From Patescibacteria group bacterium (GTDB lineage: Bacteria > Patescibacteriota > Patescibacteriia > 2-12-FULL-60-25): a DNA stretch of 32,180 nt. Below, in pieces: positions 12,934 through 22,747 of the stretch (position 1 is the stretch's first letter; each line of letters opens with the position of its first letter). The position numbers and the translations under genes were made by a program. The stretch spans positions 6,514 to 38,693 of the forward strand of contig JAGOQY010000003.1 in NCBI GenBank assembly GCA_018063125.1, written 5' to 3'. The notes beneath the pieces were generated by a model that had not been told where the DNA came from, ran no database searches, and saw nothing but the letters and a program-made list of their open reading frames with translations.

Positions 12934-15561
12934 TTACACCAATTTCTCCAAACGTTCCTTCAACGCCTTCAGCTTCGCTTCCGCCTCTCCGTACTTCCGT
13001 TCCATCTCCTCTTTCACCTTCACCGGAGCTTTTGAAATAAATTCTTGGTTTCCCAATTTTCCACGGACAGATTCAAGATAGCTTTCCGTTTCTTGGATTT
13101 CCTTTTCTGTCTTGGCACGTTCTTTTTCAATATCGACAGAGCCTGCAACATTCAGGCCAATCGTCGCGCCTCCAGAAACCGTGGTCGCCCAGCCATCTGG
13201 GATTTCATCGACAAACGAAATCGATTCCGCTCGTGCAAGTGTTTTTAAAATCTCGATCTGCGCTTCCGCAAGCGATCGGACATCTTTCGCCGTGACGAGC
13301 GAGAACTCCACCATCTTCACCGGCTCGATTCCCTGCTCCGCACGAAGTCGACGCATGTCCGTGACGAGCTCACGAACGAGATCAAACTGGATTCCTGCCT
13401 CCGCAGGAATGACACCGTGGGGCCAGGCTGACACGATCAGCTGACCTTCAAACCCAGCCTCCTTCCACACAGATTCCGTCACGAATGGCATGTACGGATG
13501 CCACAACGCGAGAACGGTCTTGAGGATGTATGAGAGTATCGAAGCTTTTCCTTTTTCGATCTTCGCAATTTCAAGATACCAGTCCGCCAAATCTCCCCAC
13601 GTAAAATCCCGAAGCTCTTCACCCGCAGACGAGAACTGATACGTCTCAATCTTCTTTGTGACACTTGAAGTCACTTCCGCGAGCCGCGAAAGAATCCATC
13701 GATCCGCAAGCGTCTTCGCTTCCGGCTCTCCAACCTTTTCATCCCCGATCTGCATCAAAATAAATCGCGAGATGTTCCACAGCTTATTCGTGAAATTCCG
13801 GAAGCCCTGAATCTTCTCTTCCGACAACTTCACATCCTGCCCCGGCGTTGATCCAAGAACGAGCGATAGACGAACCGCATCCGTTCCGTATTTCGGAATG
13901 AGATCCAACGGATCCAAAATATTCCCGAGCGACTTGCTCATCTTTCTCCCCTGTTCGTCGCGAACAAGACCATGAAGATACACGTCCTTAAACGGAACTT
14001 CACCGAGCGCATACGTCGACATGAGAATCATGCGAGCCACCCAGAAAAAGAGAATATCGTATCCGGTTTCGAGAACCGCCGTCGGATGAAACGCTTTGTT
14101 CTTTTCCCACGCGTCCTTATCCGGCCAACCCAACGTCGAGAATGTCCAAAGCCCGGACGAGAACCATGTATCGAGCGTGTCGGGATCCTGCGTCCAATCT
14201 GAACCCGGCGATGTGGCAGACACCTGCATTTCTTCGCCGCGATACCATACCGGAATGCGATGACCGAACCAGATCTGACGCGAGATGCACCAATCACGAA
14301 GGTTATCGATCCAATGAAAATATGTTTTATCAAAACGTTCCGGCACGATTTTCGTTTGTCCGGATTCAACCGCATGACGCATCAATTCCTTAAGCGTCGT
14401 CTTCTCCCCCTTCTTCCATTTACCAAGCGTATCATTTCGCAGCGCAAACGATTTGTTCACACGAATAAACCATTGTTCCATCGGAAGCTGTTCCACCGGC
14501 GCACCACCACGTTCCGCAATGGGAAGATTCTGTGCAACGTCCGCGACAGATTCGAGAAGCCCGCTCGCTTCGAGCGTGCCCTGAACTTTCTTTCGCGTTT
14601 CTTCAATCGTGAGTCCGCCAAATCCTTCACCAACAGCCTCAGCAATCATGCGGCCATCTTTTCCAATGACCGGAATCGTTTCAAGTCCATGACGAACTGC
14701 CATCTCTGCATCAATCATGGAATGCGCAGGCGTCACACCAAGCGTGCCCGTCCCAAATTCCGGATCAACGGCTTCATCCGCAATAATCTTGATCGTAAGC
14801 TTCTTTCCGCAAAACGTCGGCGTAAATGTTTGTCCGACGAGTTTCGCATACCGCGCATCTTCTGGATGCACGGCCACTGCTGTATCACCGAATTTCGTTT
14901 CCGGTCGCGTCGTTGAAATCGCAATCGGAAAATCTTTATCGTATTTGAACGTCAAAAGCTTTGCCGTGGTTTCTTTGGTCTGTACTTCGTCATCCGAAAG
15001 CGTGGTCTGAAATTGCGGATCCCAGTTCACGATGCGATAGCCGCGCTCAATGATGCCGTCGTCATACATCATCTTGAACATCTCGTTCACGGCCGCATTT
15101 CGTTCTTCATCCAACGTATATTTTTCCGCCGACCAATCGCAGGACGATCCCATCTTTCGAACCTGTGTCCGGATTGTCGTCGCGGACTCCTCAGCAAACT
15201 TCACAACCTCTTCCAAAAATTTCTCACGACCCAATTCCTCGCGAGGATTCTTCATCCCCTGTTTCATCAAAAGTTGTTCGACCTTCACCTGGGTCGCAAT
15301 CGCCGCGTGATCCGTTCCTGGAATCCACCACGCGCGTTTTCCTTGCATCCGATGAAAACGGATCAACAAATCCTCAATCGCGAGCATGGTCGCATGACCC
15401 ATATGCAACGTCCCCGTCCGATTCGGCGGAGGCATCACGATGGAATACGGTTCCCCGGTTCCCTGCGGCTTGTACGCGCCGGATTCTTCCCAAGTCTTGG
15501 AAATCGCATCTTCTACGGCGGAGGCATCGTAGGCCTTTGGGAGATCGTCAAAGCGGGACAT
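12934..15561 (-). CDS. valS: Valyl-tRNA synthetase with in-frame repeat peptide
   Basis: An 875-residue class I valyl-tRNA synthetase. Motifs are PPPNRTGTLHMGHA with HMGH at 53-56, the editing domain region (about 190-350), the WCISRQIWFGHRIPVWY block (about 424-440), KMSKSLGN at 540-547, an anticodon-binding domain, and a C-terminal coiled-coil arm (about 805-875). I start at the ATG at 15561 (MSRFDDLPKAYD), which matches the family N-terminus; the frame stays open upstream. Residues 717-725, VIPAEAGIQ, are encoded by a copy of the palindromic repeat seen at 8323 and lie just after the family block LIVSAWP, in a linker of the anticodon domain. No Shine-Dalgarno; a promoter lies 12 bases before the ATG. 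Confidence 0.97.
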   Translation of the reverse strand: MSRFDDLPKAYDASAVEDAISKTWEESGAYKPQGTGEPYSIVMPPPNRTGTLHMGHATMLAIEDLLIRFHRMQGKRAWWIPGTDHAAIATQVKVEQLLMKQGMKNPREELGREKFLEEVVKFAEESATTIRTQVRKMGSSCDWSAEKYTLDEERNAAVNEMFKMMYDDGIIERGYRIVNWDPQFQTTLSDDEVQTKETTAKLLTFKYDKDFPIAISTTRPETKFGDTAVAVHPEDARYAKLVGQTFTPTFCGKKLTIKIIADEAVDPEFGTGTLGVTPAHSMIDAEMAVRHGLETIPVIGKDGRMIAEAVGEGFGGLTIEETRKKVQGTLEASGLLESVADVAQNLPIAERGGAPVEQLPMEQWFIRVNKSFALRNDTLGKWKKGEKTTLKELMRHAVESGQTKIVPERFDKTYFHWIDNLRDWCISRQIWFGHRIPVWYRGEEMQVSATSPGSDWTQDPDTLDTWFSSGLWTFSTLGWPDKDAWEKNKAFHPTAVLETGYDILFFWVARMILMSTYALGEVPFKDVYLHGLVRDEQGRKMSKSLGNILDPLDLIPKYGTDAVRLSLVLGSTPGQDVKLSEEKIQGFRNFTNKLWNISRFILMQIGDEKVGEPEAKTLADRWILSRLAEVTSSVTKKIETYQFSSAGEELRDFTWGDLADWYLEIAKIEKGKASILSYILKTVLALWHPYMPFVTESVWKEAGFEGQLIVSAWPHGVIPAEAGIQFDLVRELVTDMRRLRAEQGIEPVKMVEFSLVTAKDVRSLAEAQIEILKTLARAESISFVDEIPDGWATTVSGGATIGLNVAGSVDIEKERAKTEKEIQETESYLESVRGKLGNQEFISKAPVKVKEEMERKYGEAEAKLKALKERLEKLV
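13387..13415 (-). repeat. Palindromic repeat copy inside valS
   Basis: On minus this reads GTGTCATTCCTGCGGAGGCA then GGAATCCAG. It matches the first half of the element at 8323-8351 apart from paired changes that keep the CCTGC/GCAGG stem (CCCG/CGGG in the other copy). It is in frame and encodes VIPAEAGIQ, residues 717-725 of ValS. Confidence 0.8.
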
Positions 15562-15737: not shown

Positions 15738-16895
15738 ATGGCACTGGCCCCAGAACAACAGGCGATTGAGCTCATCATGCGCGCCAAGCGCATTCTCATC
15801 GTTTCTAAAGATCACGCCGCCATCGACGCACTCGCTTCCGTCGGGGCGTGTTTGGCATTTCTGACAAAACTAGGCAAAGCCGCAGACGCGGTGATCCCCG
15901 GCCATGATGCCAACCGAGTGCCGGCCTTTTTGCCGGTTTCGATCCCCATTCAACCCGCCGTCGGAGCCATGCGCGCCTTCGAATTATCCCTCGATGTCTC
16001 CAACACTCCCCTTTCTGAACTCCTCTACGACGTGAAGGACGGGAAGCTCGAAATCACCGTGACGCCGAAATCCGGAGAATGGTCTCCGAAAGACGTCACA
16101 TTCAAACACGGACAGGATCGATACGATCTTGTGATCGCTCTCGACTGTCCGGATCTCGCTTCGCTCGGCTCTCTCTTCAAAGAACACGCGGACTTCTTTT
16201 ATCGAACCACGGTCGTGAACATTGATCGCGATGCAACGAACGAACATTGGGGCCAGGTGAATCTTGTGGATCTGAACGCCGTCTCCACGACCGAGATCTT
16301 GTTCGGGATGTTTGATCGCTGGAACAAAAACCTCATCGACGAACCAATTGCGACGGGACTTCTCGCCGGCATGATTGCGAAGACGCAATCGTTCCGCACA
16401 CCGAACGTCACCCCAAAGACGCTCGACACCGCTTCGAAACTCATCGCCATGGGCGCGAAGCGCGAAGAGATCGTTCACGGTCTCTGGCGCACGAAGAGTG
16501 TCCCAACGCTAAAATTGTGGGGACGCGCGCTTTCCCGTTTGGAATATGATCGTGCTCACGGACTCGTCTGGACAACGCTCTCGCGCGAAGACTTTCTCTC
16601 TGCTGGTGCACCGGATGATGCGCTCGACGGCATTGTTTCCGAACTGGTCGCGTATTCGCCGGAAGCGAAAGTTGTTGTCTTGATCCACGAAAAAGGAAAT
16701 TCCACTCAAATGGGCGCATGCGTGACGATTCACGCGATGCCTCCCTACTCGGCCACAGAGCTCGGTCGTGTCTTTGGCGCGAGTGGCGCACGAGATCGCG
16801 TCGAGTTCTGCCTGACGCCGGGTCAGCCACTTGTCGAAGGAACCCTGCAAATCATTGACCGCCTCCGAGAAACCCTGAAAAACACGTCCCGCTAA
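15738..16895 (+). CDS. DHH-like phosphoesterase with lost DHH motif
   Basis: A 385-residue protein with the overall plan of DHH-family phosphoesterases (NrnA/RecJ-like: nanoRNase or pAp phosphatase). The first motif region is SKDHAAIDALASVGA (about 23-37), where N-x-D-x-D-A-x-x-S is usual. The strand LVIALDCPDLASLG (about 131-144) keeps its Asp. The defining DHH motif is replaced: VVNIDRDATNEHWGQVNLVD (about 159-178) has DRD where 'IDHH' is expected. The C-terminal DHHA1-like part is present (STQMGACVTIH). With metal ligands missing, it may be inactive or use another chemistry. It has its own promoter and terminator. The stop codon lies in the terminator loop. Confidence 0.72.
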   Translation: MALAPEQQAIELIMRAKRILIVSKDHAAIDALASVGACLAFLTKLGKAADAVIPGHDANRVPAFLPVSIPIQPAVGAMRAFELSLDVSNTPLSELLYDVKDGKLEITVTPKSGEWSPKDVTFKHGQDRYDLVIALDCPDLASLGSLFKEHADFFYRTTVVNIDRDATNEHWGQVNLVDLNAVSTTEILFGMFDRWNKNLIDEPIATGLLAGMIAKTQSFRTPNVTPKTLDTASKLIAMGAKREEIVHGLWRTKSVPTLKLWGRALSRLEYDRAHGLVWTTLSREDFLSAGAPDDALDGIVSELVAYSPEAKVVVLIHEKGNSTQMGACVTIHAMPPYSATELGRVFGASGARDRVEFCLTPGQPLVEGTLQIIDRLRETLKNTSR

Positions 16896-18623: not shown

Positions 18624-18659
18624 AAAACACCCCACCTCTCGCGAGAGGTGGGGTGTTTT
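18624..18659 (+). terminator. Terminator of the doxX-like gene
   Basis: An uninterrupted 36-base inverted repeat: AAAACACCCCACCTCTCG is mirrored by CGAGAGGTGGGGTGTTTT. It is strong and symmetric, so it may also stop transcripts from the minus-strand RNA at 18680. Confidence 0.92.
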
Positions 18660-18679: not shown

Positions 18680-18767
18680 AAAAAAGGACAGCAGGGGGTG
18701 TGGTCCGGAACGGCATCCTCGCCAGAACCCGCTCCGTAAACCCACCCTCTGCTGCCCTTTTTATCTT
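18680..18767 (-). ncRNA. Probable small structured RNA, unidentified
   Basis: A region of about 88 nt with no ORF. On minus it forms a rod: the 5' end AAAAAGGGCAGCAG pairs with 3' CUGCUGUCCUUUUU (one G-U), continues as GGGUG/CACCC after a mismatch, and then, past a small internal loop, forms the 8-bp stem CGGAGCGG/CCGUUCCG. A small apical hairpin follows (UUCU, GGCG loop, AGGA). The transcript ends in six U, so the closing stem doubles as terminator. A promoter lies 8 bases before the proposed 5' end. Size and shape recall small bacterial SRP RNA, but the conserved GGAA loop with flanking AGCA is absent on this strand. It is too short for 6S RNA. Identity unknown. Confidence 0.6.
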
Positions 18768-18774
18768 GGAGAAT

Positions 18775-18803
18775 AGAGTACCCCCGAGGCAAAAACCTGT
18801 GAA
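18775..18803 (-). promoter_or_regulatory. Promoter of the small RNA
   Basis: On minus, TTCACA (18798-18803; one mismatch to TTGACA), a 17-base spacer and TACTCT (18775-18780). The same -10 hexamer is used by the 16S promoter. The start would be near 18767. Confidence 0.6.
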
Positions 18804-18820: not shown

Positions 18821-19504
18821 CTATTTCTTACACGATGTGGAACACGTTTCGTAGGCCGTTTTGCAGGAAGCGAGTTTTACTTCATCCGTTCCAGCCGTTT
18901 TTTGACATTCGGCGTTTCGTGCATCACAGGTCGTACATGCAACGGCAGCCGTACCCGGCGCGGGAAACACGGAAGCTTCTCGACACTTCTTCGCACATGC
19001 CTCGGCGCCTGCCGCATTCGTCGCTGGTTCTTTCTTGCAGGATTCAATACAGATCGCCACTGGATCTGTCGGAGCCGTTGCACCGCGACAGTCTTTCGCC
19101 TGAGCAACACATTTATCATTCATCGTCTTGAGCAACGTCTCAAGACGCTCCACCCGCTTTCCCAGATTTCGAATTTCCGTCAAAACCGTGGCGTTCGTAT
19201 TTGCCGTACCGCCCGTCGTCTGTGCTTCGACAGAACTCCAAGCAATCGCTCCCGTTAGCACAATCGCGAGACCGGAAACAATCGCCGCAGTCCACACATG
19301 TGCGGCACCACGAGCGGCATGCACGATATGATGATCGCGCATGTGCGATGTTGGTCCAACGTATCGCACGGCACACTCACGGCCACAATCACCATGCCCG
19401 CAGGCAGGTCCGCTCGTCATTCCGCCCATCGGACCCTCAGGGATCGGAGAAGAAGCGGCTTTTTTGGGACGACGGGAAGGGGCTTTTGGTTTTGGCTCGG
19501 CCAT
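18821..19504 (-). CDS. Membrane-anchored Cys-rich protein
   Basis: A 227-residue protein of unknown function. It has a basic Pro/Lys/Ser-rich start (1-25), then a Cys/His cluster ACGHGDCGREC (about 33-43) followed by RYVGPTSHMRDHHIVH (about 47-62), which could bind metal on the inner side. A single membrane helix follows at about 70-92, then a short coiled coil (about 105-130), and an outer region with eleven Cys in C-x3-C and similar spacing (CIESC, CAKKC, CTTC, CKTAYETCSTSC), probably disulfide-bonded or metal-binding. I start at the ATG at 19504; the frame is open further but that stretch covers the promoter. No Shine-Dalgarno is visible. I associate this type with Patescibacteria. Confidence 0.72.
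   Translation of the reverse strand: MAEPKPKAPSRRPKKAASSPIPEGPMGGMTSGPACGHGDCGRECAVRYVGPTSHMRDHHIVHAARGAAHVWTAAIVSGLAIVLTGAIAWSSVEAQTTGGTANTNATVLTEIRNLGKRVERLETLLKTMNDKCVAQAKDCRGATAPTDPVAICIESCKKEPATNAAGAEACAKKCREASVFPAPGTAAVACTTCDARNAECQKTAGTDEVKLASCKTAYETCSTSCKK

Positions 19505-21240: not shown

Positions 21241-22747
<1,507 letters not shown>

What the first reader, a model, noticed from the sequence alone, without database searches (positions are those of the whole stretch)
18680..18803. Unidentified rod-like small RNA with its own promoter and terminator
Between the doxX-like gene and the Cys-rich protein gene, the minus strand has TTCACA-17-TACTCT, then about 88 nt whose two ends pair over 14 bp, followed by a second 5-bp block and an 8-bp inner stem with a G-U pair, ending in six U. 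No ORF fits. The shape suggests a stand-alone RNA, but the SRP hallmark (GGAA loop with flanking AGCA) is missing on this strand and it is too short for 6S, tmRNA or RNase P. It may be a lineage-specific RNA or a strongly diverged SRP RNA.
Basis: partly seen in the sequence, partly recalled or inferred. Interest (0 to 1): 0.78.

Follow-up and report, generated by a model that had tools for sequence, protein, structure and literature searches.

The report
New Uhrbacteria rod-shaped small RNA
The minus strand carries a real, previously uncatalogued small non-coding RNA of about 88 bases, kept for a long evolutionary time by part of one family of tiny Patescibacteria (Candidatus Uhrbacteria), with an unchanging GGCGAGGA loop on a freely evolving but always paired stem; it is not the protein-targeting SRP RNA, and its function is still open.

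Summary
An 88-nt minus-strand rod (18680-18768) with its own promoter and U-tract is real and conserved. Homologues were found in 19 genomes from 8 of 21 genera of one Candidatus Uhrbacteria family. They are single copy, always just 3' of the same gene (a small Cys-rich membrane protein), and absent from the rest of the class sample. On 19 sequences, 15 of 25 pairs show changes on both sides (49 cells; shuffles mean 16, 0 of 500 as high), while the loop core GGCGAGGA is identical in 19/19. A -35/-10 promoter is conserved upstream (0 of 200 shuffles as good). No Rfam 15 family matches at gathering score. A diverged SRP RNA is not supported: no SRP RNA hit in the phylum sample (0/143), no Ffh M domain in relatives (0/38). 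CsrA and Hfq were not found either. Perfect complements of the loop in translation-start regions are not shared by orthologues of two RNA-bearing genomes, so a conserved mRNA target has no support. Best reading: a new lineage-specific small RNA, type-I 3'-UTR-like in position, whose rod presents one invariant loop, more likely to a protein than to a conserved mRNA. Function is inferred, not shown.

The parts
18680..18768 (-). predicted RNA, about 88 nt (TSS estimated about 7 nt after the -10; ends in U6)
   Evidence: fold z = -6.4; 19 homologues with covariation; TSS position is inferred
18798..18803 (-). -35 element TTCACA
   Evidence: sequence; TTNNCA-like -35 with a 17-nt spacer recurs in homologues; sum of promoter scores over 19 loci exceeds all 200 shuffles
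18775..18780 (-). -10 element TACTCT (most homologues: extended TGNTATNNT)
18749..18762 (-). basal stem, 5' arm (14 bp)
   Evidence: covarying columns
18681..18694 (-). basal stem, 3' arm, running into the terminator U-tract
18729..18736 (-). inner 8-bp stem, 5' arm (CGGAGCGG)
   Evidence: pair 27-57 of A2 flips between G-C and C-G between genera
18706..18713 (-). inner 8-bp stem, 3' arm (CCGUUCCG)
18716..18723 (-). invariant apical core GGCGAGGA
   Evidence: identical in 19 of 19 homologues
18680..18685 (-). U-tract of the intrinsic terminator
   Evidence: sequence; a run of 4 or more T close after the stem in 15 of 19 homologues (my count)
18821..19504 (-). upstream gene c0: small Cys-rich protein (CGHxxC...C, basic N-terminus, one hydrophobic segment), no Pfam match; its 3' end always precedes the RNA
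15738..16895 (+). convergent DHH-family gene, part of the conserved neighbourhood (16 of 17 loci)
   Evidence: Pfam DHH match 27.4 bits, just under the cut-off of 28.1

Best explanation
A new lineage-specific small RNA of some Uhrbacteria. It is transcribed from its own sigma-70-type promoter directly after the stop codon of a conserved Cys-rich membrane-protein gene, folds into an 88-nt rod, and ends in an intrinsic terminator that in most loci also serves the upstream gene (position of a type-I 3'-UTR sRNA). Shown by sequence: the conserved unit, paired stems, promoter, U-tract and locus. Inferred: the rod is a handle that presents the invariant GGCGAGGA loop to a partner that reads its sequence. 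I think an RNA-binding protein is the more likely partner (about 55%), and a trans mRNA or other RNA the next (about 30%).
For: 19 homologues, 8 genera, single copy, same locus. 15 of 25 pairs with double changes; sliding partners by 1-3 columns destroys pairing, 88% to 33-55%. GGCGAGGA 19/19, while its internal pairing is not kept: G020 shows it as a heptaloop, and several genomes lose the pair at its last A. Promoter conserved. Terminator-like hairpins before the promoter in G011 and G015. No shared mRNA complement: 0 orthologue pairs at 7-10 nt in start regions; duplex-energy overlap 1, expected 1.
Against: No transcript data. Not found in 22 of 41 family genomes, 16 of which keep the c0 gene, so it is not essential across the family. 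No protein partner identified. The target test covered two genomes (about 75-85% of each), with start sites I predicted, so targets outside start regions or differing between species are not excluded.
Confidence: 0.55

Rival explanations
1. Trans-acting antisense sRNA: the GGCGAGGA loop is a seed that pairs with UCCUCGCC in one or more target mRNAs.
For: An invariant, exposed 8-nt loop on a variable stem is what a seed looks like; type-I 3'-UTR sRNAs such as MicL and DapZ repress target genes (PMC7821165).
Against: No orthologue pair out of 404 between G032 and G002 has a 7-10 nt complement in both start regions, and whole-gene 8-mers are not shared. No Hfq in 38 relatives, though Hfq is not needed in all bacteria.
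Confidence: 0.27
2. Only an elaborate 3' end of the c0 mRNA: a terminator and stabiliser, with no separate RNA function.
For: Always directly 3' of c0; in the window no other terminator lies between the c0 stop and the rod; genomes without the rod mostly have a simple terminator there.
Against: A terminator needs no invariant loop; the promoter between the stop codon and the rod is conserved; G011 and G015 have a terminator-like hairpin for c0 before the rod.
Confidence: 0.13
3. Strongly diverged SRP (4.5S) RNA.
For: Size, rod shape, single copy, own promoter and terminator resemble 4.5S RNA (from general knowledge).
Against: No GGAA tetraloop, no AGCA strand; no Ffh M domain in 38 relatives (all 14 control genomes ring) and no SRP54 NG domain in the own genome; RNA not found in about half the family.
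Confidence: 0.01
4. CsrA/RsmA sponge: AGGA in a hairpin loop titrates CsrA.
For: GGC-GAGGAU-GCC in several homologues looks like a CsrA site.
Against: No CsrA gene in 41 family genomes; only one site per RNA; the GCC half is not conserved.
Confidence: 0.01
5. cis leader or attenuator of the TrmH/SpoU-type methyltransferase gene that follows in the g18 genomes.
For: In 8 of 17 loci this gene follows on the same strand, in G033 with its ATG right after the U-tract.
Against: In G000, G011, G015, G016 and G020 the next gene is convergent, yet rod and loop are kept.
Confidence: 0.03

Closest known systems
Type-I 3'-UTR-derived sRNAs (MicL, DapZ, RsmW; review PMC7821165)
   Same: own promoter directly after an upstream gene's stop codon, intrinsic terminator at the end
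   Different: no sequence relation known; no Hfq or CsrA found in this lineage; rod with a single invariant loop; target unknown
Bacterial small SRP RNA (4.5S, RF00169)
   Same: short rod, own promoter and terminator, conserved apical part
   Different: lacks GGAA loop and AGCA strand; no Ffh partner; patchy distribution
CsrB/RsmW-type protein sponges
   Same: GGA-containing hairpin loop
   Different: one site only, CsrA not found
Rfam BTnc231 (RF04180)
   Same: weak cmscan match, 32 bits
   Different: far below its gathering score of 80.4; the match joins the rod to the separate doxX terminator

Membership tests
Bacterial small SRP RNA (RF00169) | reaches the family's gathering score | tested here: not met
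   no match in window or genome
Bacterial small SRP RNA (RF00169) | GNRA/GGAA apical loop with 3' AGCA of domain IV | tested here: not met
   apical core is GGCGAGGA in 19/19
Bacterial small SRP RNA (RF00169) | partner protein Ffh (M domain PF02978) in the genome | tested here: not met
   0 of 38 relatives including own; 14 of 14 controls ring; the own genome is 82% complete
Type-I 3'-UTR-derived sRNA | promoter within or directly after the upstream CDS | tested here: met
   conserved -35/-10 between the c0 stop and the rod; sequence prediction only
Type-I 3'-UTR-derived sRNA | 5'-triphosphate transcript observed | not testable with these tools
   no transcriptome on hand
Type-I 3'-UTR-derived sRNA | trans-regulation of target mRNAs | tested here: inconclusive
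   no conserved complement in start regions of two genomes
CsrA sponge RNA | CsrA present in the genome | tested here: not met
   0 of 41 family genomes
CsrA sponge RNA | several GGA hairpins | tested here: not met
   one GGA loop only
Any described Rfam 15 family | gathering-score match | tested here: not met
   window and 9 homologue loci give only SSU rRNA and tRNA

The most novel reading that the evidence does not exclude
The rod is the RNA half of an undescribed ribonucleoprotein of Uhrbacteria, a lineage in which no Hfq, CsrA or SRP could be found: an unknown protein reads the GGCGAGGA loop.
Probability: 0.3. Interest if true: 0.68.

Novelty: new member of a known kind. Interest (0 to 1): 0.5.

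Why it matters
Regulatory RNAs of Patescibacteria are little studied: my searches of the held library found no paper on one in Uhrbacteria. Here is a well-supported RNA family with covariation, a promoter and a clear functional core in a lineage without detectable Hfq, CsrA or SRP. It gives a concrete bait for finding RNA-binding proteins in these bacteria. The apparent lack of SRP RNA and Ffh across the sampled relatives is itself of note.

Tried and rejected
SRP RNA: no RF00169 and no Ffh M domain. CsrA and Hfq partners: not found. 16S rRNA pairing: no run longer than 8 including G-U. mRNA targets: none shared. Mobile palindrome: one copy per genome, one locus. Phage carriage: the two viral-contig hits and hits L058, L059, L061 and L066 do not form the rod. 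R1 hits in G216, G312 and the second G031 hit do not reproduce the core and were dropped. Plus-strand RNA: folds less well (-45.4 against -55.6) and most homologues lack a U-tract on that strand. A c0 tree does not resolve whether the RNA was gained once and lost several times: 4 changes, weak support. A script that tried to delimit the helix ends automatically overshot in several genomes, so the U-tract count was made by eye.

Full report
What is there. The minus strand of 18680-18803 holds a promoter (TTCACA-17-TACTCT), then an 88-nt rod that ends in U6. The rod folds at -55.6 kcal/mol, z = -6.4, 0 of 200 shuffles as low. The plus strand folds less well.

Conservation. blastn in the family found clear copies in 9 of 41 genomes; record titles name Candidatus Uhrbacteria / Patescibacteria. 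A covariance model (R1) and inspection of the intergenic region after the same gene raised this to 19 genomes in 8 of 21 genera. A refined model (R2) found nothing outside the family in 381 genomes of the class (stricter filters were used there). Each genome has one copy, always directly 3' of gene c0 (window 18821-19504, minus), with the convergent DHH-family gene close by in 16 of 17 annotated loci. Sixteen further family genomes keep c0 but have a simple terminator, a tRNA gene or a neighbour gene in place of the RNA. On a c0 tree the RNA label needs 4 changes against 11.8 for shuffled labels, so it is old in the family and was lost, or gained, a few times (weakly resolved).

Structure. On 9 sequences 8 of 24 pairs changed on both sides; on 19 sequences 15 of 25, with 49 double-changed cells against 16 in shuffles, none of 500 as high. 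Sliding partners by 1-3 columns drops paired cells from 88% to 33-55%. Sequences of one genus are related, so cells are not independent events, but changes occur between genera (for example pair 27-57 of A2 flips between C-G and G-C). The apical GGCGAGGA is identical in all 19. The letters of this core were part of what found several homologues by sequence, but G020, G015 and the g2 genomes came from a model search over the whole rod and from synteny, and carry it too. Its own internal pairing is not conserved: G020 shows it as a loop of seven closed by U-A, G027 and G029 lack the preceding U, and the base facing the last A is U, A or G. This suggests that the letters, not a fold within the loop, are selected. 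The g2 genomes appear to carry an additional 5' hairpin before the rod (seen by eye in G001, G002 and G003).

Transcription unit. A -35/-10 pair lies 6-17 nt before the rod in the g18 genomes and in G000, G011, G016, G015 and G024, and further up in g2, where the extra hairpin intervenes. The summed promoter score over 19 loci is 207 against 157 +/- 11 in shuffles, 0 of 200 as high; 12 have the TG of an extended -10 against 2.4 expected. G020 and G004 have no convincing promoter by this score. A T-run of 4 or more closely follows the stem in 15 of 19 (my count). In the window there is no separate terminator between c0 and the rod, so c0 transcripts would also end there. G011 and G015 have a terminator-like hairpin between c0 and the RNA promoter. 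This is the architecture of type-I 3'-UTR sRNAs as defined in PMC7821165. No transcript data were available, so the start site is inferred.

Not SRP. No match to RF00169 in the genome, 96 relatives or 143 genomes of the phylum, while 11 of 14 controls ring. The Ffh M domain is absent from 38 relatives with all 14 controls positive, and the SRP54 NG domain from the own genome. The own genome is 82% complete, but many relatives are over 95%. The RNA also lacks the SRP hallmark and was not found in half of the family.

Partner. CsrA is absent from 41 family genomes, Hfq from 38 relatives. To test base pairing I fetched most of two RNA-bearing genomes (G032, G002), predicted genes and paired 404 orthologues. 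No orthologue pair shares a 7-10 nt complement of the loop in its start region (0.2 expected at 7 nt), none shares the 8-mers within the gene, and duplex energies overlap only as expected by chance. 16S rRNA shows nothing beyond 8 bp. This does not exclude species-specific targets, but lowers the base-pairing reading and leaves a protein as the likelier reader of the loop. That step is inference.

Known? No Rfam 15 family at gathering score in the window or at 9 homologue loci; the best sub-threshold match (BTnc231, 32 of 80.4 bits) joins the rod to the neighbouring terminator. Searches of the held papers for Uhrbacteria with non-coding RNA, and for related terms, gave nothing on such an RNA. 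The library lacks most subscription papers, so novelty rests mainly on Rfam.

Verdict. Real; a new RNA family of a known kind (stand-alone bacterial small RNA next to a gene's 3' end). My estimates: existence as a conserved structured RNA about 0.93; own promoter used about 0.8; protein-bound function about 0.55 of the mechanism weight.

Noticed in passing
G000 and relatives: No SRP RNA in 143 genomes drawn from the phylum and no Ffh M domain in 38 relatives: the SRP pathway appears to be lost, or unrecognisable, in this part of Patescibacteria.
   Followed up: partly
window 18821-19504 (-): Gene c0: small protein with a basic N-terminus, CGHxxC...C motif, conserved DHH and a hydrophobic segment; no Pfam family; found in 35 of 41 family genomes.
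   Followed up: partly
window 18628-18655: Palindromic terminator-like hairpin CACCCCACCTCTCGCGAGAGGTGGGGTG, able to serve both strands; a 94% copy occurs on another contig (G000:C74:10038-10070).
   Followed up: no
window 21241-22747 (-): 16S rRNA gene with no 23S rRNA match anywhere in the 32-kb window, so the rRNA genes look unlinked; it lies upstream of c0 in several relatives too.
   Followed up: no
L083, directly after position 12970: In G030 a long imperfect palindrome (TGTCATTCCGAGGGAGTAGC...GGGATGACA) sits right after the RNA's U-tract and looks like a dispersed repeat; not part of the RNA.
   Followed up: no
L090, L091, L093, L128 (G001-G004): In genus g2 the RNA seems to carry an extra 5' hairpin of variable sequence between promoter and rod.
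   Followed up: partly
L080-L087 and L090 (g18 loci and G001): A TrmH/SpoU-type RNA methyltransferase gene follows the RNA on the same strand in 8 of 17 loci, in G033 starting right after the U-tract.
   Followed up: partly
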